A stretch of 25,922 bases of DNA. Origin: Promethearchaeota archaeon. GTDB taxonomy: Archaea > Asgardarchaeota > Lokiarchaeia > Sigynarchaeales > SOKP01. Shown here one piece after another: positions 3,951 to 25,657 of this stretch. The position numbers and the translations under genes were made by a program. Location of the stretch: NCBI GenBank assembly GCA_019057775.1, contig JAHLWT010000222.1:1-25922 (forward strand), given 5' to 3'. The notes under the pieces were generated by a model. The model worked only from the letters and a program-made list of their open reading frames with translations. It was not told the origin of the DNA and did no database searches. How positions within the stretch are numbered: position 1 is the first letter of the stretch; the number at the start of each line of letters is the position of its first letter.

Positions 3951-5885
3951 TTATATTTCTATAGCAGCCATGGCACCTTCATAAATCGCCTTAGTTGCAT
4001 CTTTTGGTTTTAGGGCATCTCCAACAGAATAAACATCAGAGTTAAAATTTTTAAGTTCCTGTGCTAAAGTATTATTAGGAAGAACTCCGGCTGCCAATAC
4101 CACGCTATCAATATTTTTGATTTCCTGCTCCTCGTTATCTTTTTTGATAATGACTGAATTTTTATTAATTTTTATGACTTTAGAGTTGGTTAATACTTTT
4201 AAATCAATCATTCTCTTTAATTCTTCTGTAAAAATAATATGAGCATCTTGAGGCATATCCGTAGCAATATCGGGTAACATTTCTACCAAAAATACTTCTC
4301 TTTGAGTAGTTCCCATTAGGTAATGAGCTGTTTCAGCGCCCACTGAACCACCACCGATAACCACTACACGTTTTCCAGCTTTTTTCTTCCCTGCTAATAT
4401 CTCATCACTGTCCACCACAAAAGGTTGATCTACACCAGGAATATTAGGGATAAGTGTATGTGCGCCGGTAGCAAGTATAACCGTATCCGGATTTTGCTTC
4501 ATAATTTCCCCCTTGTTGACACGAACACCTAGATGTACTTTAACCTTTAATCTATCTATTTCTTTTTTAAAATACTCTACAGCCTCTGCATAACCCGTTT
4601 TATTTGGAGGAATCGAAGCTAAAATCAATCGCCCACCCAATTCTTCATTCTGCTCATAAAGCTCAACATCATGTCCTCTAAGGGTAGCCACTCTGGCTGC
4701 TTCCATGCCAGCAGGACCTCCTCCTACAACAACCACTTTCTTTGATTCTTTTGCAGGTGTAATTTTAAATGTTGATTCTCTGCCAGTTTCCGGATTAATG
4801 GTACATTTTACTGCCCGATCCTCAGCATTTCGGTCATGACAACCCTTATTGCAAGCTATGCAAGGTATAATTTCTTCTGATCTACCCTCTTGTGCTTTTT
4901 TAGAAAAATCAGGGTCTGCCAGTAAAACTCTTCCCAAACAAACTAAATCAGTCTTTCCGCTGGATAATATTTCTTCAGCTAATTCCGGAGTATTAATTCT
5001 TCCTGCAGTCATGACCGGTACTTTGACGACCTCTTTAATATTTTCTGCAAGATAAACATTGATACCGGGTTTATGATACATATTTGGACAAGTACGGACA
5101 TAAGGATACATTTGAGCAGATACACTAATTGCCGCTGCGCCTAATTTTTCCAAATATTGAGCAATTTCCCGGGAGAGATGCATGTCTATGCCGTTTGGCC
5201 TTAATTCATCTCCGGAAATCCTTACAGTGATGGTAAAATCGTCTCCGACTAATTCGCGGGCTCTTTCAAATATCTCTTTAATAAAACGCATTCTTCCCAA
5301 AAAAGAACCTCCATATTGATCGGCTCTAAAATTGGTCAAGGGAGACATAAATTGAGCGATTAAATAACCATGGGCACAATGTAATTCGACAGCATCAAAT
5401 CCAGCCTCTTTGGCTCTTCTTATTCCCTGAGCGTAATACTCTACATAATCTCCTACTTCTCGCGTTGTGAGAGCTCTGGGCAAATCATATTCCTCTGTTT
5501 CCGGTTCAAAGACAGAGGCTGATACCGGCTGGTAACCGCAAGTAGCAATATTGGTTTCACGTCCGGAATGATGAATCTGTGCTGATATTTTCGCATCAGC
5601 CTGATGAATTGCATCAGCCATTCTTTTTAAGCCGGGAATCCGACTATCATTGTCTATAAATATTTGACCTCCAAAATTTCCGTCAGCACGAATAAGAACT
5701 GACCCAATGGTAATTAGCCCAGTGCCTCCTTCGGCTTTCCTTTTATAAAAAATAATTTCTCTATCAGTAATTGAACCATCAGGGGGTGTTATATGTACTG
5801 ACATCGGAGCCAGTACAATTCTATTTTTTAATTTCATGGTTCCGATAGTGATGGGGGAAAATAAATTATCGTATTTTTTTGTCAT
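3951..5885 (-). CDS. Fe-S flavoenzyme, NADH:flavin oxidoreductase / 2,4-dienoyl-CoA reductase family (copy B)
   Basis: 644 residues with the same architecture as copy A: OYE barrel (LKNRIVLAPMSVHITP near 20), the substrate-side HCAHGYLIAQF motif, a 4Fe-4S Cys set (CIACNKGCHDR... and a later Cys), then FAD and NAD(P)H Rossmann motifs (VVVGGGPAGMEAAR, VVVIGGGSVGAE). It starts at ATG behind AAGGAG. It is the last gene of the long operon, 30 bp after the SDR at 5916. Relative to copy A the barrel middle (about residues 135-258) is nearly identical, whereas the N-terminus, the loop after AAISVSAQMYPY and the C-terminal third have diverged. That loop lies near the expected substrate pocket of the barrel, so the two copies may act on different enoyl or dienoyl substrates. 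The pairing recalls BaiCD/BaiH, but either gene could equally be a general dienoyl-CoA reductase. Confidence 0.9.
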   Translation of the reverse strand: MTKKYDNLFSPITIGTMKLKNRIVLAPMSVHITPPDGSITDREIIFYKRKAEGGTGLITIGSVLIRADGNFGGQIFIDNDSRIPGLKRMADAIHQADAKISAQIHHSGRETNIATCGYQPVSASVFEPETEEYDLPRALTTREVGDYVEYYAQGIRRAKEAGFDAVELHCAHGYLIAQFMSPLTNFRADQYGGSFLGRMRFIKEIFERARELVGDDFTITVRISGDELRPNGIDMHLSREIAQYLEKLGAAAISVSAQMYPYVRTCPNMYHKPGINVYLAENIKEVVKVPVMTAGRINTPELAEEILSSGKTDLVCLGRVLLADPDFSKKAQEGRSEEIIPCIACNKGCHDRNAEDRAVKCTINPETGRESTFKITPAKESKKVVVVGGGPAGMEAARVATLRGHDVELYEQNEELGGRLILASIPPNKTGYAEAVEYFKKEIDRLKVKVHLGVRVNKGEIMKQNPDTVILATGAHTLIPNIPGVDQPFVVDSDEILAGKKKAGKRVVVIGGGSVGAETAHYLMGTTQREVFLVEMLPDIATDMPQDAHIIFTEELKRMIDLKVLTNSKVIKINKNSVIIKKDNEEQEIKNIDSVVLAAGVLPNNTLAQELKNFNSDVYSVGDALKPKDATKAIYEGAMAAIEI

Positions 5886-5915
5886 TTTATACTCCTTAAT
5901 TTTTATATATTAGAA

Positions 5916-6686: not shown

Positions 6687-6712
6687 TAGTTCACTTCCTC
6701 CTTTCCGAATGA

Positions 6713-7471: not shown

Positions 7472-7515
7472 TTCCATAAACCCCCCTTTTGTTATATAAA
7501 ACAATTAATTTAAAC

Positions 7516-8748: not shown

Positions 8749-8824
8749 TTTCAATTCCTTAAATTTCAAACAATTATCTTTTTATAAATTTATTTTGGAA
8801 TATTTTCTTTATTAATGAACATAC

Positions 8825-9901
8825 TTACTTTAATATATCTGTTGAAAAACCAATGAATTCCAAATCTTTTTGGTTTTTAAATTTATAAAATCCAATTTTA
8901 GATGTTTCCAATTCTCCATTACTCTGAAAAGAAATATCTCCGACAATTGAATTCATTTTTATTGATTTAATATTTTTTAACATATTTCCGCGTGTTATAT
9001 CTGATCCACATTTTTTCATAGCATCAATCAATAGCTTGGCTGTAACATATCCTTCTGCTGTGTAGACCGAATATATTTCACCATATCGCTCTTTGAATTT
9101 AAGAGCAAAATCATGAGTTAGTTCATTTCTATATAAATCTGTACAAACATTACTTTGATATGGTCCATCAATATTGAAACCTGGAGTCGTTAAAAATTTA
9201 GAAGGTTTAATGGCATCGGTACCCAGATAAATACTTTTTAGTCCTCTTTCCCGTAGTTTCAAAGCTACTAAATTACAGATCGGCTCCATACCAGCGAAAA
9301 ATATGTATTCTGGATTAATTTGAACCACCTTATCTATAGTATCTGTCAATCTATCCTCATCATCCTGAATTTTAATTTTATCAAGAATTTTTATATCTTT
9401 TTTTTGAGCATATTTTTCCATATATTTATTTAATCCTATGGCAAATTCAGTATCATCATTTATTAGTAAAAGGTGTTTTATTTTAAAAAACTGATCTAAA
9501 AAATTGGTGACAATCTCAGCTTGCATATCATCATTAGGAATTAAACGAAAAAAAGTGGAATAACCTTGTTGAGAAACATCTGTAATAGAGCCCGAATAAG
9601 TTATTTGGGGTAAACCAGCATTGTTATAAATAGGGGCGCCCGCTTTTGTTGCATCGCTTCCATTAGGTCCAAGTACTCCAACAATTAAGGGGTCTGATGA
9701 AAATTTTCTTGCTACTTCTACGGCTTTATTCGTTTCCGCTCCGTCATCTTCAATAATTAACTCCAAACCAAAATCCAAATCTTCTTCCTTTACTTCTTCA
9801 AAAGCAATTTTCACTGCTTCCACTTGGGCTTTACCATGTTTTTTTTCCACACCGCTTAACGCAGTAGAAAAACCAATTTTAAAAAGTTTCTTTTCAGCCA
9901 T
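8825..9901 (-). CDS. Type 1 periplasmic-binding-protein-like (Leu/Ile/Val-binding family) without signal peptide
   Basis: 358 residues in the LivJ/AmiC fold: FKIGFSTALSG at the N-terminus, VGVLGPNGSDATKAGAPIY near 93, LPQITYSGS, FFRLIPNDDMQAE, and YTAEGYVTAKLLIDAM in the second lobe. Family members with a transport role carry a signal peptide or lipobox Cys; this one begins MAEKKLFKIGFS directly. The start is fixed by AAAGGAGAAC 6 nt upstream and an in-frame TAA just before it, so no leader has been missed. No ABC permease or ATPase genes are nearby. A cytoplasmic ligand sensor, comparable to AmiC in the amidase operon, is therefore a better reading than a transporter subunit. It sits between the oxidoreductase gamma gene and the MFS carrier, so the likely ligand is the pathway substrate or an amino or oxo acid. 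Confidence 0.85.
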   Translation of the reverse strand: MAEKKLFKIGFSTALSGVEKKHGKAQVEAVKIAFEEVKEEDLDFGLELIIEDDGAETNKAVEVARKFSSDPLIVGVLGPNGSDATKAGAPIYNNAGLPQITYSGSITDVSQQGYSTFFRLIPNDDMQAEIVTNFLDQFFKIKHLLLINDDTEFAIGLNKYMEKYAQKKDIKILDKIKIQDDEDRLTDTIDKVVQINPEYIFFAGMEPICNLVALKLRERGLKSIYLGTDAIKPSKFLTTPGFNIDGPYQSNVCTDLYRNELTHDFALKFKERYGEIYSVYTAEGYVTAKLLIDAMKKCGSDITRGNMLKNIKSIKMNSIVGDISFQSNGELETSKIGFYKFKNQKDLEFIGFSTDILK

Positions 9902-9979
9902 AATATGTTCTCCTTTGAGAAATTATGGAAATTTAAATTTGCTTCTTTGAGTATTATTTGTGAATCATTCTTTTATTTC

Positions 9980-10507
9980 TTAAAACTTCATTCCTTCTAG
10001 CAATGCTTTACGGTTAATATCGACAACTTTTGGTTTTGTTCTAAAATAATCCGACATCAATTTCTCAACTGACTCATATTTAACTGATTTTACCCTCTTT
10101 AAGTAGTTTCCCAATGCAACCATATTTGCTGCCTTAATATTACCAAGCTCTAAAGCAATATCATTAAAAAGGATCTTGACCTGTTGAACAGATTTTAACT
10201 CTGCTGTTTCAGAGATAAGGGAAGAATTAAGAATAATTAATCCTCCCTCTTTGACAAAATCCTTAAATTTCCAATAAGAAGGTTCGTTTAACATAATCAT
10301 GCAATCAATTGAATCCGGTAAAGGGGTAATAACTTCTTTATCAGATATCACCACTGTACAATTTGCCGTCCCGCCTCTCATTTCCGGTCCATAAGCAGGT
10401 AAGCAAGAAGAATATTTATTCTCTTTTATAGCGCTAATGGCTAACAGAGTTCCTAATAACATAACACCCTGACCGCCTGAACCTCCAATTAATACTGTGT
10501 CTTCCAT
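9980..10507 (-). CDS. 2-oxoacid:ferredoxin oxidoreductase, gamma subunit
   Basis: 175 residues, usual size. Signature GGSGGQGVMLLG at 8-19, then LPAYGPEMRGGTANC at about 36-50 and IMLNEPSYWKF. This subunit completes the alpha/beta/gamma/delta complexes that oxidatively decarboxylate a 2-oxoacid to acyl-CoA, CO2 and reduced ferredoxin. Its ATG directly abuts the stop of the beta gene (TAGATG), with an AAGGAGG ribosome site inside that gene, so the two are translationally coupled. KorC (2-oxoglutarate) and VorC (branched 2-oxoacids) look alike at this level, and I cannot choose between them. Confidence 0.92.
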   Translation of the reverse strand: MEDTVLIGGSGGQGVMLLGTLLAISAIKENKYSSCLPAYGPEMRGGTANCTVVISDKEVITPLPDSIDCMIMLNEPSYWKFKDFVKEGGLIILNSSLISETAELKSVQQVKILFNDIALELGNIKAANMVALGNYLKRVKSVKYESVEKLMSDYFRTKPKVVDINRKALLEGMKF

Positions 10508-11455
10508 CTACGATTCCTCCTTGGGTACTTTAATCTCTCCTAAAGGAAAGATTTTAGTTATCTCATTTTTAATGACTTCGTTAGCATTTTCACGAGACAT
10601 TTTCCAATTAGTAGGACAAATTCCTAAAACCTCAACGATCGAAAAGCCTTTTTTTTGGATTTGAACCTCAAAAGCCTTTTTAATATATTTTTTAGTCTTG
10701 ATAATATTTTTAGGACTGTTTACAGCCCCCCTGGCAATATAGGCACTTCCTTCCAGATTAACAAGCATTTCGCATAGCTTAATCGGATAACCGTCTGATG
10801 CCTTTTTCCCAAAAGGTGAAGTCGTTGTTTTTTTACCTAAAAGCGTAGTAGGAGCCATTTGACCACCTGTCATGCCAAAGTTACCATTATTTACAAAAAT
10901 GGCCGTAAAATTTTCACCTCTATTAGCTGCATGAATAATTTCCGAGATCCCAATGGCAGCGATGTCACCATCGCCTTGATAAGTAAAAACAAAACTATCC
11001 GGGTTTACGCGCTTGATACCGGTAGCTACTGCCGGTGCTCTGCCATGTGCACCTTCTACGTAGTCTATATCTAAAAATCGGTAGATAAAAATCGCACAAC
11101 CAATTGGTGTCACCCCGATTGCTTTTTCCTGTAGATTTTTTTCCTCGATTAATTCAGCGATAAGTCTGTGGACAACACCATGGCTGCATCCGGGACAATA
11201 ACTGGTAGGAATGTCGTAAAGAACTTTTGGTCTTTTTACTTTCAGTTTATCCTCTTTATAAATTTCTATTGCCGCTTCCGGACATACCAAAGCACATAAT
11301 CCACAACCTGTACAACGTTCAGGGTCAACTTGTTCAATGAAAGTAAACCCCAATTTATTGAATTCTTTTGATTGAATTAAAAGATCATTGGGACAACTTT
11401 CGATGCAAGCACCACATCCTTTACATTTTTCTCTGTCTATTTTGATTTTATACAT
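10508..11455 (-). CDS. 2-oxoacid:ferredoxin oxidoreductase, ferredoxin (delta) fused to TPP-binding beta subunit
   Basis: 315 residues. Residues 1-70 are a two-cluster ferredoxin (CKGCGACIESCP, then CTGCGLCALVCPEA). From about 85 follows the thiamine-diphosphate beta subunit: YCPGCSHGVVHRL, TPIGCAIF, VEGAHGRAPAVATGIK, and the TPP motif running from GDGD to NNGNFGMTGG. In many complexes delta and beta are separate genes; here they are one polypeptide, which places the electron acceptor clusters next to the TPP site. It catalyses CoA-dependent decarboxylation of a 2-oxoacid with the alpha and gamma subunits. The aminotransferase gene separates it from alpha (12701), and gamma follows with no gap. 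Confidence 0.92.
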   Translation of the reverse strand: MYKIKIDREKCKGCGACIESCPNDLLIQSKEFNKLGFTFIEQVDPERCTGCGLCALVCPEAAIEIYKEDKLKVKRPKVLYDIPTSYCPGCSHGVVHRLIAELIEEKNLQEKAIGVTPIGCAIFIYRFLDIDYVEGAHGRAPAVATGIKRVNPDSFVFTYQGDGDIAAIGISEIIHAANRGENFTAIFVNNGNFGMTGGQMAPTTLLGKKTTTSPFGKKASDGYPIKLCEMLVNLEGSAYIARGAVNSPKNIIKTKKYIKKAFEVQIQKKGFSIVEVLGICPTNWKMSRENANEVIKNEITKIFPLGEIKVPKEES

Positions 11456-11492
11456 ATTTCCTTTATCCTTTTTACAAAAATAACCTATTATT

Positions 11493-12674
11493 TTATGTTA
11501 ATTTAGAAACTGCTGCTTTTATTCGGGGGATAGCCTTAACGATATTTTCATAAGAAGTAGCATATGACATTCTTATAAATCCTTCCCCGTTTTCCCCAAA
11601 ATTTGTACCGGGAACCGTTGCTACGCCCACTTCTTCCAAAAGATAATTTGCAAAAGTTTCACAATCCATTCCTATCTTTTTAATATTTACAAAAAGATAA
11701 AATGCACCTTTTGGTTCTAAACAGGAAAGCTTTTCAATTTTATTGATATTGGTAACTAAATAATCTCTTCTTTTCCGATATTCCTCTTTCATTTTTTCTG
11801 AAGGCTGGCTATCTTCTGTTAATCCCGCTATTGCACCCCATTGAGCGAAAGAATTAGCTGAGGTCGTATTATAAAAACAGAATCGGAACATCGGATCTAT
11901 TAATTTTTTATCTGCTGCTATATAACCCAATCGCCATCCGGTCATTGCAAAGTATTTAGAAAAACCATTCAGTATAATGGTCCTTTCTTTCATGCCGGGG
12001 AAAGAAGCAATGCTAACATTTTTCTCATTACCATAGGTTAATCTTTCATAAATCTCATCTGAGATAACGAGTAAATTATGTTCCTTTGCTAAATTAGCCA
12101 CATCGAGCAGCGAATCCCTGTCAAGAATCGAGCCGGTTGGATTATTTGGAGAAATTAATACAATTACTTTTGTCTTTGCAGTTGTTTTTTTCTTTAATTC
12201 TTCCATATCAATCTGGAAATTATTCTCTTCTTTTAATGAATAGGTTTTTATAATTCCCTGAGCAATCTTCGGAATATAAATATAACTCAAGTAGCCGGGA
12301 TCCGGGATTAATATTTCCTCCCCTTCATTCAAAAAGCACAGAATGGACGCAAGCATCCCTTGAGCTACACCCGTCGTAACTATAATCTCTTCAGGGAGAT
12401 ATTCTAAATTGTTCTCGTTTTGGAGTTTTTTACTAATTGCTTTCTTTAAACCATCAATTCCGGCAATCGGGGAGTAATGGACTTCTCCTTTATCCAATGC
12501 CTCTTTCGTGGCATTTTTTATGTGTTGGGGTGTATCAAAGTCTGGTTCACCCAAATCAAAATGAATAACATCTCTTCCCTGTTTTTCCAATTCATTGGCT
12601 CGTGCTACAATTTTACGAATACCGGAAAGCAATACATTTTCCATTCTCTTGGCTTGAGAAATTTCTTTTTCCAT
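11493..12674 (-). CDS. PLP-dependent aminotransferase, class I/II (aspartate aminotransferase-like)
   Basis: 393 residues from the ATG at 12674. The frame reaches a GTG at 12683, but AGGTGA spaces properly only to the ATG. Motifs in 393-residue numbering: GEPDFDTP near 43, SPNNPTGS around 176-182 with the PLP-ring Asn, DEIYE with Asp206, and the Schiff-base Lys240 in NGFSKYFAMTGWRLGY. C-terminal GEGFIRMSYA holds the carboxylate-binding Arg. It converts an amino acid to its 2-oxoacid (usually with 2-oxoglutarate or a similar acceptor). It sits between the alpha and beta genes of the 2-oxoacid:ferredoxin oxidoreductase, which suggests it supplies or drains that enzyme's 2-oxoacid. The amino acid is not readable; branched-chain, aromatic or alanine-type activity are all possible. 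Confidence 0.88.
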   Translation of the reverse strand: MEKEISQAKRMENVLLSGIRKIVARANELEKQGRDVIHFDLGEPDFDTPQHIKNATKEALDKGEVHYSPIAGIDGLKKAISKKLQNENNLEYLPEEIIVTTGVAQGMLASILCFLNEGEEILIPDPGYLSYIYIPKIAQGIIKTYSLKEENNFQIDMEELKKKTTAKTKVIVLISPNNPTGSILDRDSLLDVANLAKEHNLLVISDEIYERLTYGNEKNVSIASFPGMKERTIILNGFSKYFAMTGWRLGYIAADKKLIDPMFRFCFYNTTSANSFAQWGAIAGLTEDSQPSEKMKEEYRKRRDYLVTNINKIEKLSCLEPKGAFYLFVNIKKIGMDCETFANYLLEEVGVATVPGTNFGENGEGFIRMSYATSYENIVKAIPRIKAAVSKLT

Positions 12675-12700
12675 TATTATCACCTACTTATTTATGATTA

Positions 12701-13762: not shown

Positions 13763-13789
13763 CTCTCTATCAATATATGCAATCTATCA

Positions 13790-14245
13790 CTAACATTTAT
13801 CGAATGCTTTTGTTTTTACCATCAACGTCATCTTGCCTTCTTGAACGACGCAATCATCCTGGTTCATCACTTCAAAGTCTAAAAAAATAATTCCTTTTTC
13901 TTTATCCTTGGTCATCCTTTTTTCACTGAGTTTAATTTTGCAGAAAATTGTATCTCCTAATTTGATTGCATTTTTAAACTTCCAGCCTGTTTCTAAAAAA
14001 GCAAGTGCTGTTCCATCTACCAAACCCAACCTGCACCATAATCCAACGGCAATAGAAGCACCCAATAATCCATGGGCAATTCTAGAACCAAAAATTGTTT
14101 TCTTTGCAAATAAATCATTCGTATGAAGCGGGTTATAATCCGCAGTTAATCCGGCAAATAGACTTATATCAGAATCAGTAACCGTTCTAGAAGGAGATAC
14201 AAATTCATCCTTAATTTTAAAATCTTCATAATACATGACATTCAT
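13790..14245 (-). CDS. MaoC-like (R)-specific enoyl-CoA hydratase
   Basis: 151 residues with a single hot-dog domain. The hydratase-2 motif is complete: Asp36 and His41 in ADYNPLHTN, followed by IFGSRIAHGLLGAS. GWKFKNAIKLGDTI and FLDFEVMNQDDCVV are the usual C-terminal strands. Such proteins add water to trans-2-enoyl-CoA giving (R)-3-hydroxyacyl-CoA, or dehydrate it; mesaconyl- or methylmalyl-CoA dehydratase relatives use the same fold. It starts at ATG behind GGAGA. It lies between the carboxyltransferase and the oxidoreductase. Because the operon's crotonase lacks one catalytic Glu, this may be the main hydratase of the pathway. Confidence 0.88.
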   Translation of the reverse strand: MNVMYYEDFKIKDEFVSPSRTVTDSDISLFAGLTADYNPLHTNDLFAKKTIFGSRIAHGLLGASIAVGLWCRLGLVDGTALAFLETGWKFKNAIKLGDTIFCKIKLSEKRMTKDKEKGIIFLDFEVMNQDDCVVQEGKMTLMVKTKAFDKC

Positions 14246-14274
14246 GATTTTTCTCCATTTATTAGTTTTAGAAA

Positions 14275-15810
14275 TTAACGTATCACTATATTCCTTTTCT
14301 GTTCCACATTCTGCTTAATTTTTCTATCTTCACAATAGTATGTAAAACGCTTAATTAATTCTTCTCTTAAATGTGATCCGACCACAATATCATCAATAAA
14401 GAATTTAGCAGCTGCTTTTAAAGCATTAATATTTTCCTGATATTCTAAACGTTTTTCTTCAATATATTTCGCTTTTTCATTTTTATCTTGAATTTCCTCT
14501 ATTTTGTTAAAATATATTGCGTTTACTGCTGCTTCCGGCCCCATAATGCCAGGATAAGCTGTTGGCAATGCAATACAGGCATCAGGCATGCAAGAAGCTC
14601 CCGACATAGCTACATAACCAGCCCCGTAAGCTTTTCTTACAATAACGCTGATCCTGGGAACTGTACAGTTAAAAATAGTATTTAACCAACGTGCTCCTTT
14701 TCTAATGATGGCTTCTGATTCAACTTTCCTACCGATCATAAACCCGGAAATATCCATTAAAAATAAAAGTGGAATCCCAAAAGCATTACAAAGACCAATA
14801 AAATGGGACCCTTTTTCTGCAGTATCCGGAAACAATACGCCACCTCTACAATTACTCTGATTTGCTAACAAGCCGATGGTTCTCCCTCCTAATCTTGCAA
14901 AACCTGTAATTAATTCCCTTCCGAATAATTTTTTAAATTCAAAAAAAGAATCTTCATCCACAATTCTTTCTATCAGGTCTTTAACATTATAAGCAATTCT
15001 TTGATTTTCCGGAATTATTTCTTCAATCGGCCTGCCGTCTTTCGGCTCTCTACTTTCTTGCTGAAGAATTGTACCTTGCCAATTCTGAGGCATGTATTGC
15101 AAATATTTCATTACAATATCCATCGCTTCTTGATCGTCCTTAGCCAAATAATCACCCAAACCGCTTGTCTCGCAATGCATTCTGGCTCCGCCCATCTCTT
15201 CCATGGTTACTCTTTCCCCGATGACCATTTCAGCCATCCTAGGAGAACCGAGATAAACACTAGTATTTTTATCTACCATAATAACCACATCAGACAATGC
15301 AGGAATATAAGCGGATCCTGCCGGAGATGGACCGAATACAGCACTGACTTGAGGGACTACCCCGGACATCACACCCTGTAATCTAAAAATCATTCCAGCA
15401 TGTCTTCGATCAATAAAAATATCAAACTGCTCATCCAACCTTGCACCTGCAGAATCAATTAAATAAAGAATGGGAATTTTTAATTCAAGGGCTTTCTCCT
15501 GAATCCTGATAATTTTTTCTATCGTCTTTGATCCCCAAGAACCTGCTTTCACCGTCATATCATTCGCCATAATACATATCAGTCTACCTTTTATTTTACC
15601 GATACCTGTTACAATGGCATCGGTAGGTAATTTTTCTTCCAAACATCTTGCAAATACACCATCTTCAACAAAACTGCCTTCATCTAACATATAGTCCAGT
15701 CTTTCACGAACATGCATTTTATTTTGCTGTCTTAATTTTTTTAAATAAGGTCTACTCTCAATATCAATAATTTTACTACGTAACTGGTTTACTCTTTCAC
15801 TTAGGTTCAT
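14275..15810 (-). CDS. Acyl-CoA carboxylase, carboxyltransferase (beta) subunit
   Basis: 511 residues, full-length PccB/MccB/AtuC/MmdA type. The N-half has NKMHVRERLDYMLDEGSF, LIDSAGARLDEQF, FGPSPAGSAYIPALSD and EEMGGARMHCETSGLGDY; the C-half has NQSNCRGGVLFPDTAEK, FLMDISGFMIG, RKAYGAGYVAMSG and PGIMGPEAAVNAIYF. These two crotonase-fold halves move a carboxyl group between carboxybiotin and an acyl-CoA. It starts at ATG behind GGAGG. No biotin carboxylase, biotin carrier protein or membrane decarboxylase subunit is present in the window, so it must use partners encoded elsewhere. It could work as carboxylase or, with a Na+-pump partner, as decarboxylase. Propionyl-, methylcrotonyl-, geranyl- and glutaconyl-CoA types all share these motifs. 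Confidence 0.88.
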   Translation of the reverse strand: MNLSERVNQLRSKIIDIESRPYLKKLRQQNKMHVRERLDYMLDEGSFVEDGVFARCLEEKLPTDAIVTGIGKIKGRLICIMANDMTVKAGSWGSKTIEKIIRIQEKALELKIPILYLIDSAGARLDEQFDIFIDRRHAGMIFRLQGVMSGVVPQVSAVFGPSPAGSAYIPALSDVVIMVDKNTSVYLGSPRMAEMVIGERVTMEEMGGARMHCETSGLGDYLAKDDQEAMDIVMKYLQYMPQNWQGTILQQESREPKDGRPIEEIIPENQRIAYNVKDLIERIVDEDSFFEFKKLFGRELITGFARLGGRTIGLLANQSNCRGGVLFPDTAEKGSHFIGLCNAFGIPLLFLMDISGFMIGRKVESEAIIRKGARWLNTIFNCTVPRISVIVRKAYGAGYVAMSGASCMPDACIALPTAYPGIMGPEAAVNAIYFNKIEEIQDKNEKAKYIEEKRLEYQENINALKAAAKFFIDDIVVGSHLREELIKRFTYYCEDRKIKQNVEQKRNIVIR

Positions 15811-15867
15811 TTTTTTTCCTCCATTTTCCTGTTAAGAAAATAATATCCAATTTTTTATTTACGAATA

Positions 15868-17070
15868 TTAATTTACTTTTACAATAAAACTTTCTCCCTG
15901 ACCTATGCCTCCGCAGATGGTAGATAATCCACATCCGCCACCTCTTCGTTTTAATTCATAAATCAATGTCATCAAAATCCTCGCAGCTGATGCACCGGTC
16001 GGATGACCAATGGCAATCGCTCCACCATTAACATTGGTTTTATTTTTAATTTCTTCTATTTTTTTAGAATCATTATTACCCATGATAATTGCAGAAACTA
16101 AAGGCATCACGGCAAAGGCTTCATTGATTTCAACCAGATCAATCTGGTCAATGGTCATCTTTGCTTTTTCCAATGCTTTCAAGGAGGTGATTCCCGGAAT
16201 GGTAGCAATACCACGAGGATGCCCTGCCGCCATGGCATGCGCAACAATAGTGGCTAATGGTTTAATATTTAATTCATTAGCTTTTTCTTTAGACATCAGT
16301 ATAACTGATGCAGCACCTGTACTTAAACCCGGTGCATTTCCAGGGGTTACAGTTGGACTATCATAGACCGTGGAAAGCTTTGATAATTTTTCTAGGGTTG
16401 TATCAGGTCTGGGCCCTTCATCTTCGCTCATAATAATCATATCAACCTGTTTTCCTCTTTTCATTATTGGTATCTCAAAAAGAATAATTTCATCTTTAAA
16501 CTTTCCCTCAGCTAATGCCTTGGCATATAATTGCTGGCTTCTCAATGCCCACTTATCCTGATCTTCACGACTGACCCCATATTTAACAGCATCTGTTCCT
16601 GCCTGCCAGGCTCTTCTTTCCCCTGTATAGGGGCAGCTTACCTGAATAATATCATTTAAAGTAATAGACCCTATTCTATTCCCCCAACGTAGTTCCGATA
16701 AAAAATAAGGAGTTGCACTGAGATTTTCTGATCCTCCCCCAACAGCTACATCAATATCCCCGCCCTTAATTGAACGATATCCGATACCAATAGCAATTGC
16801 AGATGAACAACAAGCTCTATCGGTTGTAGCGGCAGGGGTCGTCTCAGGTAATCCCGCTTTCAATGCAATTTGTCGGGCAATAGACCTGTTTTCACTTGGC
16901 ATATTGACTCCGAAATAAACTTCATCTACTTCTTTATAGTCTAAATTTATTCTATCTAATGTACCTTTTAAAACATGAGCACCTAAATCAACAGTACTAC
17001 TATCTCTGAGCAAGCCGCCAAATTTTCCAAAGGGTGTTCTGGCTGCACTAACAATCACAACTTCTTTCAT
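15868..17070 (-). CDS. Thiolase (acetyl-CoA acyltransferase family)
   Basis: 400 residues. SAARTPFGKFGG at the N-terminus; the nucleophile region is DRACCSSA with Cys87 in the usual position and a second Cys next to it. NEAFAVMPLV, the catalytic His in NGGAIAIGHPTGASAARI, and the C-terminal acid/base Cys in STICGGIGQGES complete the set. The protein cleaves a 3-oxoacyl-CoA with CoA, or condenses acyl-CoAs. The replacement of the common C-G/A-S-G by C-C-S-S is unusual and may alter the acyl pocket. It lies between the CoA-transferase and the carboxyltransferase. It differs markedly from the second thiolase at 20864, so substrates of two chain lengths or shapes are likely. Confidence 0.92.
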   Translation of the reverse strand: MKEVVIVSAARTPFGKFGGLLRDSSTVDLGAHVLKGTLDRINLDYKEVDEVYFGVNMPSENRSIARQIALKAGLPETTPAATTDRACCSSAIAIGIGYRSIKGGDIDVAVGGGSENLSATPYFLSELRWGNRIGSITLNDIIQVSCPYTGERRAWQAGTDAVKYGVSREDQDKWALRSQQLYAKALAEGKFKDEIILFEIPIMKRGKQVDMIIMSEDEGPRPDTTLEKLSKLSTVYDSPTVTPGNAPGLSTGAASVILMSKEKANELNIKPLATIVAHAMAAGHPRGIATIPGITSLKALEKAKMTIDQIDLVEINEAFAVMPLVSAIIMGNNDSKKIEEIKNKTNVNGGAIAIGHPTGASAARILMTLIYELKRRGGGCGLSTICGGIGQGESFIVKVN

Positions 17071-17092
17071 TCACTTATCTCCTTTTTATTAC

Positions 17093-18316
17093 TTAAACAA
17101 CATGGTTAGTTTTTAATTTATTAATTTCATCTGCTGGAAAATTTAAAATTTCTTTTAATATTTCATCGGTATGTTCCCCTAATCTGGGAACCGTTTTTGC
17201 TTTTTCCTCTACCGGAATACTACCCATTTTTACCGGATTGCCAACGACTTTAATTTTCGAGGCAACCGGATCATTGATTTCCATCCACATCTTTCTTGCT
17301 TTTGCCTGAGGTGAATTAAAAATCTGTTCTGCATTGTTAACGATTCCGATGGGGACATTGTATTTCAGCATGGTTTCACATACTCCTTCACTAGTTTTAT
17401 CTTTCATCCATTCATTGATAATTGGTTCTAACTCTAATTTATACTTAGACCTTAAACTTGCAGTTTTAAATCGCTCATTCTCAATTAACTCAGGGTGATT
17501 AATGGCTTGACAAAAACGTTTCCACATTTTGGATTCCAGAACAATAATGGCTACATAACCATCTTTCGTTTTAAATGAACCCCAAGGATAAATTAAACTT
17601 TCTTTCCCCCTGCTCATGACCTTTCCAGTCATAGAATAAAAATTTAAACTTCTTTCAGTTAAAGAAAGCATCACATCATACATTGCCATATCAACAAAAT
17701 CACCTTGGCCGGTAATTTTTCGTTTGTACAAGGCAAGCATAACGGCATAAGCAGTCATCATGCCTGTTACGACATCTCCAAAGGCAATCATTGGATGTAA
17801 AGGTGGGCCATCTTCATATCCAATAAGGTCCATTAATCCTCCCATGGCTTGAATGACAATGTCATAAGCAGTCCGTTTTGAAAATGGACCTAAATATCTC
17901 TTATCAACACCAAAACCACTAATAGATACATAGACTATTCTTGGATTAATTTCTTTTATAGTTTCATAACTGAATCCGATAGAAGTTAAAAACCCGGGTT
18001 TTAAATTCTCAAGAATAACATCACTTTTTTTCAATAATTCAGAAAATATTATTTTCCCTTCTTCACTTTTTAAGTTAAGGGTTAAGCTTTTTTTATTTCT
18101 ATTCCATCTCATAAAATAACCACTTATAGTACCACCTTTATCGTCCTTTAAGATAGGTCCGGGCTCTCTGGCAGCATCTCCTCTTCCAGGAGATTCAATC
18201 TTGATCACCTCAGCTCCTGCATCACCCAGCATCATGGTGCAATACGGTCCTGCAACCTGCGTTTCTATCGATAAAACCCTTATTCCGTCTAATGGTTTAA
18301 TAGTTTTATTATGCAT
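17093..18316 (-). CDS. Class III CoA-transferase (CaiB/BaiF family)
   Basis: 407 residues, typical length. The N-terminus has GIRVLSIETQVAGPYCTMML and LGDAGAEVIKIESPGRGD; RNKKSLTLNLKSEEGK and ENLKPGFL follow. The catalytic Asp is Asp181 in IAFGDVVTGM, which forms a glutamyl/aspartyl-CoA intermediate in this family. The C-terminal part (PRLGEHTDEILKEI) is the standard ending. It transfers CoA from a donor thioester (succinyl-, acetyl- or a product CoA) to a carboxylic acid without ATP, matching the absence of any acyl-CoA ligase here. It starts at ATG behind AAGGGG. The gap to the mutase upstream is 110 bp, the largest inside the operon, and holds a candidate promoter. Confidence 0.92.
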   Translation of the reverse strand: MHNKTIKPLDGIRVLSIETQVAGPYCTMMLGDAGAEVIKIESPGRGDAAREPGPILKDDKGGTISGYFMRWNRNKKSLTLNLKSEEGKIIFSELLKKSDVILENLKPGFLTSIGFSYETIKEINPRIVYVSISGFGVDKRYLGPFSKRTAYDIVIQAMGGLMDLIGYEDGPPLHPMIAFGDVVTGMMTAYAVMLALYKRKITGQGDFVDMAMYDVMLSLTERSLNFYSMTGKVMSRGKESLIYPWGSFKTKDGYVAIIVLESKMWKRFCQAINHPELIENERFKTASLRSKYKLELEPIINEWMKDKTSEGVCETMLKYNVPIGIVNNAEQIFNSPQAKARKMWMEINDPVASKIKVVGNPVKMGSIPVEEKAKTVPRLGEHTDEILKEILNFPADEINKLKTNHVV

Positions 18317-18351
18317 TATTTATTTTCCCCTTGTTATTTTTTTCACCAACT

Positions 18352-18380
18352 TATTTAGTGTTTTAAATTATTATCATCAA
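18352..18380 (-). promoter_or_regulatory. Candidate internal promoter ahead of the CoA-transferase
   Basis: In the largest gap of the operon the minus strand has TTGATG (18375-18380), 17 bp, then TAAATA (18352-18357), about 35 bp before the ATG at 18316. AT-rich spacers produce such matches by chance, so this is tentative. Confidence 0.25.
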
Positions 18381-18426
18381 TTGCTTGTAATCATAATATG
18401 TAGCTTTCTTTTATAAATATAAAAAT

Positions 18427-20040: not shown

Positions 20041-20062
20041 TTTTTATTCTCCTTGTCCTCTC

Positions 20063-20851
20063 CTATTTATTTTTCCAAATGGGTTTTCTTTTCTCAAGGA
20101 AAGAAGAAATTCCTTCTTTGGCATCTTCACTTCCCATTAAAATAGTGACCATATATCGTAAATACTTTATGGATTTCATTAACTCCATATCTTGAGTATT
20201 GATTAAAGCTTCTCTCCCCATACAAATTGCTAGAGAACTCTTTGAAGCAATATTATCAGATAATAATTTTGCTTCTTTTTCTAAATCTTCATGGGGAACG
20301 ACCCTGTTTACCAAGCCAATTTTGAAAGCTTCTTCCGCTTTTACTATTCTTCCGGTATACAACAGTTCCATTGTTCTCTTTAAACCTATGATTCTTACAA
20401 GGGGAGCAGAAATGATTGCGCCCCAGATTCCAAGATTTATTTCAGGGATACCAAAAGTTGCTTTTTCTGAAGCAAGTGTGATATCACAGACTGCTGCAAG
20501 ACCGCAACCTCCGGCTAGAGCATATCCCTGCACAACCGCAATAGTCGGTTTTTTAGAATGAATTAAAGCATCAATTAATTTGGCATAATTTCCGGTAAAT
20601 CTTTCAATAGTAATGCTGTTTTCCTTCATATTTTTCATCATATTCTTTAAATCTCCACCGGCACAAAAAGCTTTATCTCCTGTACTCTGGATTTGAATGA
20701 CTTTTACCTCGCTATCATGATTAAATTGATTTAATGCGTCAACGATTTCATTGAGAGTGCATTCGTCCAATGCATTTCTGGCTTTAGGTCTATTGATGGT
20801 TAAATATCCGACATTTTTACTTATATTTAAAACTACATTCTGAAAGTTCAT
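20063..20851 (-). CDS. Crotonase-family protein (enoyl-CoA hydratase/isomerase-like), one catalytic Glu missing
   Basis: 262 residues. The oxyanion-hole segment is FCAGGDLKN (62-70) and the second is GYALAGGCGLAAVCDI (109-124), followed by FGIPEINLGIWGA (133-145). In rat enoyl-CoA hydratase the two acid/base glutamates are Glu144 (GGGCE) and Glu164 (QPE). Here the first is Gly117, and the second is kept as Glu137. One-Glu crotonases are often isomerases, decarboxylases or other variants rather than simple hydratases. It starts at ATG behind AAGGAG, 12 bp after the thiolase gene and 22 bp before the mutase. The exact reaction is open; the fold and CoA-thioester substrate are secure. Confidence 0.88.
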   Translation of the reverse strand: MNFQNVVLNISKNVGYLTINRPKARNALDECTLNEIVDALNQFNHDSEVKVIQIQSTGDKAFCAGGDLKNMMKNMKENSITIERFTGNYAKLIDALIHSKKPTIAVVQGYALAGGCGLAAVCDITLASEKATFGIPEINLGIWGAIISAPLVRIIGLKRTMELLYTGRIVKAEEAFKIGLVNRVVPHEDLEKEAKLLSDNIASKSSLAICMGREALINTQDMELMKSIKYLRYMVTILMGSEDAKEGISSFLEKRKPIWKNK

Positions 20852-20863
20852 CTTTTCTCCTTA

Positions 20864-22045: not shown

Positions 22046-22070
22046 TTTTATATATCTCCCTCCATCATTT

Positions 22071-22382
22071 TTATATATCTACTTCCATTCTTAACAAAGC
22101 AGTACACATAGCTTTACCCGTTTGGTCTACTCTGAGGGTTTTTGTTGCTCCTCCGCCCAATGCTTGAGTCATCACAATTTGTATTGATTCAAGATTATCC
22201 AAAGGATAAATCATTACTTTGCCTTTTACCATAGAACCAAAAAAAAATTTAACTGCTTCCGGTGTTACCTCTTTTTTAATGATTTGATAATTCTTGTTAC
22301 TTGTCGCAATCAACCCAATATTACTAATATCACCTTTATCTCCGGAACGACCAAAAGCCAAATCTTTTAATTGAACTTTCAT
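22071..22382 (-). CDS. Small AtuA-associated protein (AtuA C-terminal domain-like)
   Basis: 103 residues beginning MKVQLKDLAFGRSGDKGDIS, followed by NIGLIA, ALGGGATKTLRVD, GKAMCTALLRMEV. The RSGDKGD and LGGG motifs are those of the domain that forms the C-terminal part of single-chain AtuA proteins. Here it is a separate gene, 2 bp after the AtuA-like gene at 22385, so the two are almost certainly made together and probably assemble into one unit. No biochemical activity is known for the domain as far as I can state. It starts at ATG close behind AGGAGGTTG in the upstream gene. Confidence 0.85.
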   Translation of the reverse strand: MKVQLKDLAFGRSGDKGDISNIGLIATSNKNYQIIKKEVTPEAVKFFFGSMVKGKVMIYPLDNLESIQIVMTQALGGGATKTLRVDQTGKAMCTALLRMEVDI

Positions 22383-22384
22383 TG

Positions 22385-23743
22385 TTATTCAACCTCCTTT
22401 ATGGTAAATGTAGTTTTCACTTCTTCCCGTGGAATCAGAGTAGGCCATAATGAAATCACCGGTCGAGGTCGGTAAGGTGTGCCATACGCAGTTCCTACGC
22501 CACCTAATGTCCAAATATGAGTAGCTTCTCTACCAATTTTTGAAGCTTCTTCTCTGGTTTTTGTTCTGGCAACGACTCGTAAGCCTACTTCATTCAGATC
22601 ACTTGAAGGTTCCGGGGCTACTGTTCCATGAAGCATATTAACTCCCACATAATCAAACTGAATTTCTTCTGCTTCAAGTTTTACAGTCTTAAATCTTTCC
22701 CGGATAATTTCTTCAGCCTGTTTTGCTTTCTCATAAGCATTTGGCCAGCTAAAATATATTTGACCTTCCCCAATCCATCCATCCTGATATCCAATTTGGA
22801 CTTTTAATTTCTCCGGTCTCGGCTTACCACTCATATTTGAAAGTTTTACACGATTATTTCCTAAATCTTCCAGTTTAATCGTTGTAAAATCCGCAATACC
22901 ATCCGGCATAATATAATTTTTGGGGTCATGAACTTCATACATTAGTTGTTCTTTTATAGACCATTCATTGACAACTCCACCGGAACCCGGCACCTTTTCA
23001 ATGATCGCTTCACCATTCTCGCTGAACTCAAGAATTGGAAAACCGATATTAGCTACATTCTTAACTTTATCCCATTCATTAAATCCTCGTGTTGCACATT
23101 CTGCACATTCAATCACATGGCTGGCAATCTGTGCAGCAGCAATTTTTCCCCAATCCTTCTCAAAGGTCCACCCAAATTCATACATAATCGGACCTATATA
23201 TAGTGCTGTATCTGAACACCGGCCGACAATAACTACATCTGCACCTGCAGCTAATGCCTCAATAATAGATTCTGAACCAATATATACATTTGCTGCAATG
23301 ATATTTTCTCGAACCTTACTAATATCCTTTTCACCGGTATCCAAATTGGTTAAATCAACACCTTTAGCAATGAGTTCATCTAATTTTGGGTATAAATCAT
23401 CTCCCTCAATAATGGCGATTTTCATTCCGTTAAACCCTAAAGACTTAGCTACTTGAGCAACCTGTTCTGCTGCACTTCTCGGATTTACGCCACCAGCATT
23501 TGTGATTAACTTAATTCTTTTCGGTTGAGAAATTGGAAGGATAGCTTCCATCCAGGGAATGATATCCCTGATATAGCCCATCAATGAATTTTTATTTTTT
23601 TGTCTTTGCAAAATAGACATCGTTAATTCTGCCAGATGGTCAAAACCCAGATATTTTACATTGCCTTTTTTTGCAATTTCAACTGCCGGTTCAAGCATAT
23701 CCCCCCAAAACGCTGACCCTGCTCCCAAACGTACATTCCTCAT
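22385..23743 (-). CDS. AtuA-type protein (acyclic terpene utilization AtuA family, DUF1446)
   Basis: 452 residues. VRLGAGSAFWGDMLEPAVE at the N-terminus, YLGFDHLAELTMSIL, ITNAGGVNPRSAAEQV, VYIGSESIIEALAAGADVVI, VGRCSDTALYIGPIMYEFGW, and VPGSGGVVNEWSIKEQLMYE are the conserved blocks. AtuA is needed for citronellol/geraniol catabolism in Pseudomonas but its reaction is not established; relatives occur beside carboxyltransferases and enoyl-CoA hydratases in many catabolic operons, as here. It is the first gene of the 18-gene operon, with a GGGGG ribosome site before the ATG. About 116 bp upstream lies the end of the insertion sequence. The protein lacks the C-terminal domain present in one-piece relatives; the next gene supplies it. 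Confidence 0.9.
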   Translation of the reverse strand: MRNVRLGAGSAFWGDMLEPAVEIAKKGNVKYLGFDHLAELTMSILQRQKNKNSLMGYIRDIIPWMEAILPISQPKRIKLITNAGGVNPRSAAEQVAQVAKSLGFNGMKIAIIEGDDLYPKLDELIAKGVDLTNLDTGEKDISKVRENIIAANVYIGSESIIEALAAGADVVIVGRCSDTALYIGPIMYEFGWTFEKDWGKIAAAQIASHVIECAECATRGFNEWDKVKNVANIGFPILEFSENGEAIIEKVPGSGGVVNEWSIKEQLMYEVHDPKNYIMPDGIADFTTIKLEDLGNNRVKLSNMSGKPRPEKLKVQIGYQDGWIGEGQIYFSWPNAYEKAKQAEEIIRERFKTVKLEAEEIQFDYVGVNMLHGTVAPEPSSDLNEVGLRVVARTKTREEASKIGREATHIWTLGGVGTAYGTPYRPRPVISLWPTLIPREEVKTTFTIKEVE

Positions 23744-23878: not shown

Positions 23879-23896
23879 TAATTATTAAAATTAGCC

Positions 23897-23912: not shown

Positions 23913-23931
23913 TAAGGGTATTTACTTACAT

Positions 23932-25647: not shown

Positions 25648-25657
25648 ATTAGTGTAT

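What the first reader, a model, noticed from the sequence alone, without database searches (positions are those of the whole stretch)
3951..23743. An 18-gene, ~20-kb single-direction catabolic operon of unassigned substrate
Eighteen minus-strand genes have gaps of 0-110 bp. They combine AtuA, class III CoA-transferase, mutase, carboxyltransferase, two thiolases, two hydratase-fold proteins, a 2-oxoacid:ferredoxin oxidoreductase with aminotransferase, a leaderless solute-binding protein, an MFS carrier, SDRs and an Fe-S flavoenzyme. No named pathway I know has this complement. The parts suggest anaerobic degradation of a branched or cyclic carboxylic acid, with CoA transfer replacing ATP-dependent activation. 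The substrate is inference; the gene content and spacing are seen.
Basis: partly seen in the sequence, partly recalled or inferred. Interest (0 to 1): 0.75.

Follow-up and report, generated by a model that had tools for sequence, protein, structure and literature searches.

The report
Conserved operon degrading an amino acid
A block of about twenty neighbouring bacterial genes, kept in the same order in a distant relative, looks like a pathway for using an amino acid, perhaps tyrosine, without oxygen, including opening its ring; I found no description of it in the papers I could search, and the chemistry is inferred and untested.

Summary
The 18 minus-strand genes at 3951-23743 are real, with gaps of 0-110 bp. 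The unit is conserved: a Bacillota MAG has all 18 families in this order on two contigs, 37-75% identical, plus a second OYE gene and a B12-binding subunit between mutase and CoA-transferase. So the window's unit probably reaches 1580 and lacks that subunit. Three Chloroflexota and one Armatimonadota MAG keep ten core genes; there PDH-type E1/E2 genes (three of four) and amino-acid ABC transporters (three of four) stand in for the ferredoxin oxidoreductase and MFS carrier, with a biotin carboxylase in all four. This points to an alpha-amino acid, not a CoA-transferase-activated acid. Inferred: carboxylation, hydration, AtuA-type lyase, thiolysis, then a B12 mutase feeding a second thiolase. 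Tyrosine fits best: 4-hydroxyphenylacetyl-CoA + CO2 + 2 electrons balances acetyl- + propionyl- + succinyl-CoA, and OYEa's nearest solved structure is 2-naphthoyl-CoA reductase. Against: no OYE seen near the cluster in three of five relatives, and I know no precedent for an OYE reducing an isolated ring or for this mutase substrate.

The parts
22385..23743 (-). AtuA-family protein (452 aa), first gene; proposed lyase subunit for a tertiary 3-hydroxyacyl-CoA
   Evidence: PF07287 454 bits; weak PDB match to 9erq 'AtuA family / citramalate lyase subunit A' E 0.067; naphthalene ThnQS precedent
22071..22382 (-). AtuF: AtuA ferredoxin-like domain protein (103 aa), proposed small lyase subunit
   Evidence: PF23544 93 bits
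20864..22045 (-). ThlA thiolase (393 aa)
   Evidence: TIGR01930 425.7 bits, over cut-off
20063..20851 (-). ECH crotonase-family hydratase/isomerase (262 aa)
   Evidence: PF00378 218 bits
18427..20040 (-). MutA: acyl-CoA mutase large subunit (537 aa) without B12-binding domain
   Evidence: PF01642 619 bits; TIGR00641 635.8; best PDB match 4r3u HcmA
18317..18426 (.). 110-bp gap where G001 carries the 134-aa B12-binding subunit; no remnant found
17093..18316 (-). CaiB: class III CoA-transferase (407 aa)
   Evidence: PF02515 381 bits; PDB best 9br7
15868..17070 (-). ThlB thiolase (400 aa), partner of MutA by synteny
   Evidence: TIGR01930 384.9; adjacency count
14275..15810 (-). CT: carboxyltransferase of a biotin-dependent acyl-CoA carboxylase (511 aa)
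   Evidence: PF01039 470 bits; biotin carboxylase neighbour or fusion in 4 relatives
13790..14245 (-). MaoC-type hydratase (151 aa)
   Evidence: PF01575 76.8 bits
12701..13762 (-). KorA: 2-oxoacid:ferredoxin oxidoreductase alpha (353 aa)
   Evidence: NF005507 VorB-type 410.7, over cut-off 399
11493..12683 (-). AT: class I/II aminotransferase (396 aa)
   Evidence: PF00155 252 bits; PDB best 1gd9/1dju
10508..11455 (-). KorB: OFOR beta with fused ferredoxin domain (315 aa)
   Evidence: PF02775 and Fer4
9980..10507 (-). KorC: OFOR gamma (175 aa)
   Evidence: PF01558 116 bits
8825..9901 (-). Leaderless LivK-type binding protein (358 aa)
   Evidence: PF13458 127 bits; stops directly upstream, also in L106 and L103
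7516..8769 (-). MFS carrier (417 aa)
   Evidence: PF07690 151 bits
6713..7504 (-). SDR2 (263 aa by first TTG; true start probably an internal ATG)
   Evidence: PF13561 241 bits
5916..6686 (-). SDR1 (256 aa)
   Evidence: PF13561 207 bits
3951..5885 (-). OYEa: old-yellow-enzyme-family flavin reductase (644 aa) with a C-x2-C-x3-C motif
   Evidence: PF00724 249 bits; motif; PDB best 6qkg 2-naphthoyl-CoA reductase 344 bits
1580..3520 (-). OYEb: second OYE-family reductase, outside the stated range but part of the syntenic unit
   Evidence: PF00724 258 bits; synteny in L106; 70% identical to OYEa
1131..1478 (-). Small ORF (115 aa), no Pfam match; homologues 32-34% identical in the cluster stretches of G002, G003, G006
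23855..25877 (-). IS1634-family insertion element with imperfect terminal inverted repeats, just upstream of the operon
   Evidence: NF033559 260 bits, over cut-off; repeat arms 23855-23882 and 25850-25877, 82% complementary

Best explanation
A conserved operon for catabolism of an alpha-amino acid, with L-tyrosine as the leading candidate substrate. SHOWN by sequence: gene families, order, conservation, and other proteins standing where OFOR and MFS stand in the window. INFERRED steps: (1) uptake by MFS (ABC in Chloroflexota); (2) AT makes the 2-oxo acid; (3) KorABC decarboxylates it to an arylacetyl-CoA, giving reduced ferredoxin; (4) an NCR-like OYE, with SDRs, reduces the 4-hydroxyphenyl ring by two electrons, and ECH shifts the double bond to (4-oxocyclohexylidene)acetyl-CoA, so no acyl-CoA dehydrogenase is needed; (5) CT, with a biotin carboxylase, carboxylates the gamma carbon; (6) ECH or MaoC adds water, giving a tertiary alcohol; (7) AtuA/AtuF cleaves the ring as ThnQS does in naphthalene degradation; (8) ThlA releases acetyl-CoA and 4-oxopimeloyl-CoA; (9) MutA moves the thioester carbonyl of this gamma-oxoacyl-CoA to give 2-methyl-3-oxoadipyl-CoA (the topology of succinyl- to methylmalonyl-CoA); (10) ThlB cleaves it to propionyl-CoA and succinyl-CoA; (11) CaiB uses succinyl-CoA to (re)activate the dicarboxylate. 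My split: amino acid 0.75; the CT-hydratase-AtuA lyase block 0.6; tyrosine 0.3 (lowered from 0.35 on re-reading, because published work argues against OYE-type reductases acting on an isolated benzene ring).
For: Gene order kept in G001 at 37-75% identity. G002, G003, G005 and G006 keep AtuA, AtuF, CT, CaiB, ThlB, MutA, ThlA, ECH, MaoC and AT. PDH-type genes lie there in G003 (E1 alpha, E1 beta, E2 by NCBIfam, all below cut-off) and, by eye, in G002 and G006; amino-acid-type ABC transporters in G002, G003 and G005. Biotin carboxylase lies next to, near or fused with CT in all four; BioY in L107 by Pfam and L004 by eye. CT homologues in other genomes have an ECH homologue beside them in 29 of 38 loci. 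[quoted passage not shown] cited there as unpublished results). OYEa's best solved relative is 2-naphthoyl-CoA reductase, 344 bits against 311 for 2,4-dienoyl-CoA reductase (OYEb not searched). MutA at 55% identity or more has a thiolase within 4.5 kb in 11 of 16 loci against 6 of 64, CaiB in 10 of 16 against 4 of 64. Carbon and electrons close exactly for tyrosine. HPPD over its cut-off in 0 of 5 cluster genomes.
Against: No OYE homologue was found in the stretches held around the clusters of G002, G003 and G006; LLM-type flavoenzymes lie there (one typed, in G003; others by eye) and would have to do the reduction. The phenanthrene paper argues against a type III (OYE) reductase acting on an isolated benzene ring, and naphthalene degraders use an ATP-dependent enzyme for the last ring. 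KorABC is shared only with G001, and neither OFOR nor PDH-type genes were seen in the stretches of G005. G002 also has an MFS-like ORF (25%, partial) beyond its biotin carboxylase. No biotin carboxylase is in the window or in L010/L106; no B12-binding subunit is in the window. One search listed no B12 mutase acting on a gamma-oxoacyl-CoA, but only 12 of 1,451 papers were listed. MutA keeps the methylmalonyl-CoA mutase carboxylate-binding Tyr and Arg, which also fits an ordinary dicarboxylyl-CoA. Related MutA genes sit in loci with a ligase-like gene and no AtuA or close CT in the stretch held (L001, L011, L012, L034). NADH from a PDH-type complex would be a weak donor for a phenol ring; I computed no thermodynamics. 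Two SDRs and a second OYE are more than my scheme needs.
Confidence: 0.5

Rival explanations
1. Tryptophan or indoleacetate route of the Iaa kind: AT and OFOR make indoleacetyl-CoA; after ring opening, CaiB and MutA act as IaaL and IaaGH, moving arylsuccinyl-CoA to arylmalonyl-CoA, which CT decarboxylates.
For: IaaL is a family III CoA-transferase and IaaGH a benzylmalonyl-CoA mutase (its B12 dependence is recalled); MutA keeps the residues that bind a free carboxylate.
Against: No ring-hydroxylating enzyme, no amidase for the oxindole and no acyl-CoA dehydrogenase (IaaF) among the 20 proteins scanned. AtuA/AtuF, OYEs and the second thiolase have no place.
Confidence: 0.13
2. Leucine or another branched-chain amino acid by an Atu/Liu-like route: 3-methylcrotonyl-type carboxylation, hydration, and AtuA/AtuF in place of HMG-CoA lyase.
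For: CT, ECH and lyase logic; KorA is of VorB type; related CT genes lie beside ECH in 29 of 38 loci, and 14 of the 38 show an HMG-lyase-like neighbour start by eye.
Against: No acyl-CoA dehydrogenase in the unit; MutA, CaiB, OYEs and SDRs unexplained. G002 and G003 have another CT plus biotin carboxylase (L089, L090) that looks by eye like a separate methylcrotonyl-CoA carboxylase. HMGL-like proteins occur in 5 of 5 cluster genomes and 14 of 14 controls, so they do not discriminate.
Confidence: 0.12
3. Anaerobic degradation of a branched or cyclic carboxylic acid activated by CoA transfer; AT and OFOR act on a side product or only for redox.
For: CaiB is in the conserved core; L001, L011, L012 and L034 carry MutA, CaiB and ThlB with ligase-like genes (ligases by eye).
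Against: AT is kept with OFOR in G001 and with PDH-type genes in G002, G003 and G006; transporters of three relatives are of amino-acid type.
Confidence: 0.12
4. A substituted glutamate-like amino acid: OFOR gives a substituted succinyl-CoA, MutA the methylmalonyl-type isomer, CT decarboxylates it, then beta-oxidation.
For: MutA keeps the Tyr and Arg that bind the substrate carboxylate; mmdA is the best NCBIfam match of CT, though below cut-off (381 of 998.8).
Against: Biotin carboxylase near CT in four relatives argues for carboxylation there; AtuA/AtuF and OYEs unexplained.
Confidence: 0.1

Closest known systems
Anaerobic naphthalene degradation (NCR and thn operon, culture N47; PMC12016498, PMC11659651, passages and one section seen)
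   Same: OYE-family reductases, AtuA-like lyase, thiolases, hydratases, a CoA-transferase; a carboxycyclohexylidene-acetyl-CoA type intermediate is proposed here too
   Different: No acyl-CoA dehydrogenase and no benzoyl-CoA-type reductase found here, class III instead of family I CoA-transferase; extra AT, OFOR, carboxyltransferase and mutase
Anaerobic indoleacetate (iaa) pathway of Aromatoleum aromaticum (PMC8360864, abstract and passages seen)
   Same: Class III CoA-transferase plus an acyl-CoA mutase
   Different: CoA ligase start and decarboxylating dehydrogenase IaaF absent here; AtuA and OYE not mentioned in what I read there
Acyclic terpene (Atu) and leucine (Liu) utilisation (gene content recalled)
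   Same: AtuA family, carboxyltransferase, crotonase
   Different: No acyl-CoA dehydrogenase or biotin carboxylase here; mutase, OFOR, aminotransferase and OYEs are extra
2-hydroxyisobutyryl-CoA mutase HcmA / methylmalonyl-CoA mutase
   Same: Closest solved sequence is HcmA 4r3u (464.8 bits); large subunit without B12 domain
   Different: Keeps Tyr89/Arg207 of methylmalonyl-CoA mutase rather than the HcmA residues, but has an invariant Gly at the place of Arg87 (residue numbers and roles recalled; alignments)

Membership tests
Naphthalene thn/NCR pathway | Type III aryl-CoA reductase of the OYE family | tested here: inconclusive
   Best solved match of OYEa is NCR, 344 vs 311 bits for DCR; activity cannot be judged from sequence
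Naphthalene thn/NCR pathway | AtuA-like lyase ThnQS | tested here: inconclusive
   AtuA and AtuF present by Pfam; orthology to ThnQ/ThnS not tested, their sequences were not at hand
Naphthalene thn/NCR pathway | Acyl-CoA dehydrogenases ThnO/ThnT | tested here: not met
   No acyl-CoA dehydrogenase family among 20 window proteins scanned
Naphthalene thn/NCR pathway | Family I CoA-transferase ThnP | tested here: not met
   PF02515, class III; ThnP is family I
Iaa indoleacetate pathway | CoA ligase IaaB and dehydrogenase IaaF | tested here: not met
   Neither family among 20 window proteins scanned
Iaa indoleacetate pathway | Class III CoA-transferase plus acyl-CoA mutase | tested here: met
   Families only; the B12 subunit is missing in the window but present in G001
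Atu/Liu | AtuA and carboxyltransferase | tested here: met
   PF07287 and PF01039
Atu/Liu | Biotin carboxylase subunit and acyl-CoA dehydrogenase in the unit | tested here: not met
   Neither found in the window; biotin carboxylase in four relatives only
Methylmalonyl-CoA mutase | Substrate-binding Tyr and Arg and catalytic His | tested here: met
   Y66, R185, H222, invariant in the 24 sequences chosen for A1; role of the residues recalled
Methylmalonyl-CoA mutase | Curated MCM equivalog score | tested here: not met
   NF006944 527.6 of 876; only the subfamily domain TIGR00641 passes
Bile-acid BaiCD / bilirubin reductase / mycofactocin OYE | Curated cut-offs | tested here: not met
   OYEa 505.8 of 825, 511.3 of 750, 516.3 of 793.15

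The most novel reading that the evidence does not exclude
An oxygen-independent, complete tyrosine-to-CoA-thioester pathway in which ferredoxin electrons from the first oxidative step drive OYE-type dearomatisation of a single phenol ring without benzoyl-CoA reductase, the ring is opened by carboxylation plus an AtuA/AtuF lyase, and a new B12 mutase turns a gamma-oxoacyl-CoA into an alpha-methyl-beta-oxoacyl-CoA for thiolysis; net products acetyl-, propionyl- and succinyl-CoA.
Probability: 0.25. Interest if true: 0.9.

Novelty: new variant of a known kind. Interest (0 to 1): 0.66.

Why it matters
If the amino-acid reading holds, a family of clusters in Bacillota, Chloroflexota and Armatimonadota carries a catabolic route for which my searches listed no name. 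If the tyrosine version holds, it would add a way of breaking a single aromatic ring without oxygen, extend type III (OYE) aryl reductases to a monocyclic phenol, give a role to members of the AtuA family, and add a substrate class to B12 mutases.

Tried and rejected
Methylmalonyl-CoA-only reading (2-oxoglutarate to succinyl-CoA to propionyl-CoA): leaves AtuA, OYEs and thiolases unexplained. Leucine: see rivals. Bile-acid or steroid reading from BaiCD similarity: all three models far below cut-off. A hydantoinase-like Iaa reading of the actinobacterial loci L016-L019: I guessed it from ORF lengths, but in the two I read (L016, L019) the neighbours look by eye like acyl-CoA synthetase and CoA-ligase-like proteins, so I dropped it. 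Substrate from the ABC binding protein of L009: best matches were reconstructed ancestors of cyclohexadienyl dehydratase, which only says amino-acid type. Own-genome search: no genome held. CT at E 1e-140 or better: class of G001 1 of 1 genomes, itself; class of G002 3 of 298; phylum of G001 36 of 398; class of G004 25 of 113; class of G007 0 of 391. HMGL-like family: 5 of 5 cluster genomes and 14 of 14 controls, uninformative. Mutase matches: 1 to 8 per genome in 8 of 8 genomes, so in most of these genomes the cluster's mutase is not the only one.

Limits of counts. The adjacency counts see only thiolases similar to the window's, on the same strand, in loci of unequal length, including truncated contigs and relatives of each other, so the Fisher values overstate independence. 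The 38 loci are those returned, with near-copies among them. B12-binding and biotin-carboxylase genes were sought in relatives by exact short motifs. The mutase tree needs 5 changes for the AtuA-linked label, so it is not one clade; for seven P-proteins the label rests on equal contig lengths.

Full report
What is there. Eighteen minus-strand ORFs run from 3951 to 23743. Their families are, in transcription order: AtuA, AtuA ferredoxin-like domain protein (AtuF), thiolase A, crotonase, acyl-CoA mutase large subunit (MutA), class III CoA-transferase (CaiB), thiolase B, carboxyltransferase (CT), MaoC hydratase, OFOR alpha, aminotransferase, OFOR beta (with fused ferredoxin domain), OFOR gamma, LivK-type binding protein, MFS carrier, two SDRs, and an old-yellow-enzyme-family (OYE) reductase. 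Gaps are 30, 26, 11, 55, 78, 0, 37, 17, 27, 29, 57, 22, 110, 22, 12, 25 and 2 bp from left to right. ARAGORN found no tRNA and Rfam no family at gathering score. Terminator-like sites (10 and 6) do not exceed shuffled DNA (8.3 and 8.3), and none lies in a gap between these genes.

Conservation of the whole unit. One of them, L010, from a Bacillota MAG (isolate Tb.RUG.66), reads AtuA, AtuF, ThlA, ECH, MutA, in the window's order, up to a contig end. A search of that genome (G001) with CT found a second contig, L106, which reads MutA end, a 134-aa B12-binding protein, CaiB, ThlB, CT, MaoC, KorA, AT, KorB, KorC, binding protein, MFS, SDR2, SDR1, OYE, OYE. All 18 window genes plus the second OYE are matched, at 37-75% identity. 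Of the two OYEs, the one next to SDR1 in L106 matches the window's OYEb best and the last one OYEa, so their best matches are crossed; the small ORF 1131-1478 has no match in G001. That the two contigs are neighbours in the genome is inference: each breaks inside MutA. The window's second OYE at 1580-3520 is therefore probably the end of the operon. The missing B12 subunit is a difference: no remnant turned up in the 110-bp gap or elsewhere in the window at a meaningful score (best E 0.37).

The swapped parts. Three Chloroflexota MAGs (G002, G003, G005) and one Armatimonadota MAG (G006) have AtuA, AtuF, CT, CaiB, ThlB, MutA, ThlA, ECH, MaoC and AT in the stretches held (two contigs for G006). 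In G003 PDH-type E1 alpha, E1 beta and E2 lie where the window has OFOR (NCBIfam, below cut-off: 403.7 of 411.35, 293.2 of 321, 322.8 of 722); in G002 and G006 I recognise E1 beta and E2 by eye. I saw neither kind in the stretches of G005. A polar-amino-acid-type ABC transporter lies in G002, G003 and G005; no MFS homologue at E 1e-8 was found in the four, though an MFS-like ORF (25%, partial) lies beyond the biotin carboxylase of G002. A biotin carboxylase lies beside, near or fused to CT in all four (L102, L104, L107; fused, 1020 aa, in L004), and a BioY biotin transporter in L107 by Pfam and in L004 by eye. Unrelated proteins of the same role in the same cluster are the main reason to read the start of the pathway as amino-acid uptake, transamination and oxidative decarboxylation to an acyl-CoA.

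Not found in relatives. OYE homologues occur near the cluster in G001 and G005 but not in the stretches held of G002, G003 and G006; LLM-class flavoenzymes lie there (one typed in L103; others by eye). KorABC occurs only in G001. SDRs were not found in the G006 stretches. By an exact motif the B12 subunit was seen in the cluster only in G001.

The lyase block. CT's best NCBIfam model is mmdA, far below cut-off; its best solved relative is a propionyl-CoA carboxylase beta subunit. Of 38 further loci with CT at 49-56% identity, 29 have a crotonase homologue next to CT, and 14 show, within the 25 residues printed of a neighbour, a start that I recognise by eye as HMG-CoA-lyase-like. [quoted passage not shown] the review cites unpublished results). 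A PDB entry names an AtuA-family protein citramalate lyase subunit A, but my match to it is weak (E 0.067) and two azoreductases score better. Together this suggests carboxylation, hydration to a tertiary alcohol, lyase, thiolysis. AtuA has one match, in the cluster, in 5 of 8 genomes searched and none at E 1e-10 in the other 3.

The mutase block. MutA keeps Y66, R185 and H222, which align with Tyr89, Arg207 and His244 of methylmalonyl-CoA mutase (numbers recalled; alignment), all invariant in the 24 sequences of A1, while G64, at the place of Arg87, is invariant too. Among 80 loci, a thiolase like the window's lies within 4.5 kb on the same strand in 11 of 16 with MutA at 55% identity or more, 3 of 25 at 50-55% and 3 of 39 below 50%; CaiB in 10, 3 and 1 (Fisher p about 3e-6 each for the first class against the other 64; loci are related and of unequal length). 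Since thiolases act on 3-oxoacyl-CoAs, I propose that MutA makes a 2-methyl-3-oxoacyl-CoA from a 4-oxoacyl-CoA; the thiolase could instead serve another step. One literature search listed no such enzyme, but showed 12 of 1,451 papers. The mutase tree groups the window with P0003 and P0005 (support 100/99); the Anaerolineales mutases L007 and L009 nest with L006, L011, L012, L013 and L025 (Acidobacteriota, Nitrospirota), whose loci show no AtuA in the stretch held and, in L011 and L012, a ligase-like gene by eye. So this block seems to be shared by several pathways.

Why tyrosine. A para-oxygenated ring is what turns the lyase and thiolase steps into a gamma-oxo acid (4-oxopimeloyl-CoA), the substrate that the mutase block would need. 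The balance closes: C8 acid plus CO2 plus two electrons equals acetate plus propionate plus succinate in carbon (9 = 9) and electrons (36 = 36); tyrosine to the C8 acid releases four electrons, two of them at OFOR (established knowledge). No acyl-CoA dehydrogenase is then needed, and none was found. OYEa's nearest solved structure is 2-naphthoyl-CoA reductase (344 bits; 2,4-dienoyl-CoA reductase 311). Its relatives reduce phenanthroyl-CoA stepwise without ATP (PMC13365417, abstract and passages seen). HPPD, the aerobic tyrosine enzyme, is over its cut-off in 0 of 5 cluster genomes, though all 5 have weak sub-cut-off matches and the genomes may be incomplete. All of this is consistency, not proof.

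Against tyrosine. The same paper says type III reductases are only known from PAH degradation, gives energies as a major argument against an isolated benzene ring being their substrate, and recalls that naphthalene degraders need an ATP-dependent enzyme for the last ring. A phenol can tautomerise to a dienone, which benzene cannot; whether that is enough is untested. The OYEs are not seen beside the cluster in three of five relatives.

Literature. Searches covered open-access PMC text only, and several listings were capped (20 of 51, 20 of 876, 12 of 1,451). I saw abstract and passages of PMC8360864 and PMC13365417, passages of PMC6502838 and PMC11659651, and passages plus section 13 of PMC12016498. 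None of the papers listed or seen describes this gene set, as far as titles, abstract starts and those passages show.

Verdict. The finding is real, probably larger than stated at one end, and conserved. Its pathway is unassigned in what I could search. The amino-acid reading is well supported by synteny; tyrosine and the proposed ring and mutase chemistry are a testable hypothesis.

Noticed in passing
window 8825-9901; L106 8620-9702; L103 54-1145: LivK-type binding protein without a signal peptide, with in-frame stops directly upstream, in the Bacillota and one Chloroflexota cluster: probably a cytosolic amino-acid-binding protein of unknown use.
   Followed up: partly
window 1580-3520 and 3951-5885: The two OYE genes are 93-96% identical in DNA over codons 152-251 but 52-89% elsewhere, as after gene conversion; in the L106 pair no block of about 50 codons exceeds 71%.
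   Followed up: yes
window 23855-25877: IS1634-family element ending about 110 bp before the first gene; it may have displaced or replaced the promoter.
   Followed up: partly
window 2 to about 850, minus strand: Remains of an aldehyde:ferredoxin oxidoreductase gene with stops and frame changes; only the piece 2-289 matches PF01314 over cut-off, the rest is by eye.
   Followed up: partly
window 18317-18426: The B12-binding mutase subunit present in G001 between MutA and CaiB is missing here.
   Followed up: yes
L001, L034 (also L011, L012): MutA, CaiB and ThlB occur with ligase-like genes, amidohydrolase-like genes in L001 (PF04909), L012 and L034, and PEP-utiliser-like genes in L001 (PF00391) and L034: a second pathway type sharing the mutase block (only the L001 proteins were typed).
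   Followed up: no
L102, L104, L103, L107: LLM-class flavoenzymes (L103's typed as F420-type, others by eye) lie near the clusters that lack OYEs; possible replacement of the reductase.
   Followed up: no
L018, L019, L029: Public MAGs titled Bifidobacterium breve carry a mutase locus like those of other actinobacterial MAGs; the titles look wrong to me.
   Followed up: no
G001: The relative with the whole operon is the only held genome of its class, so the host lineage is poorly sampled.
   Followed up: no
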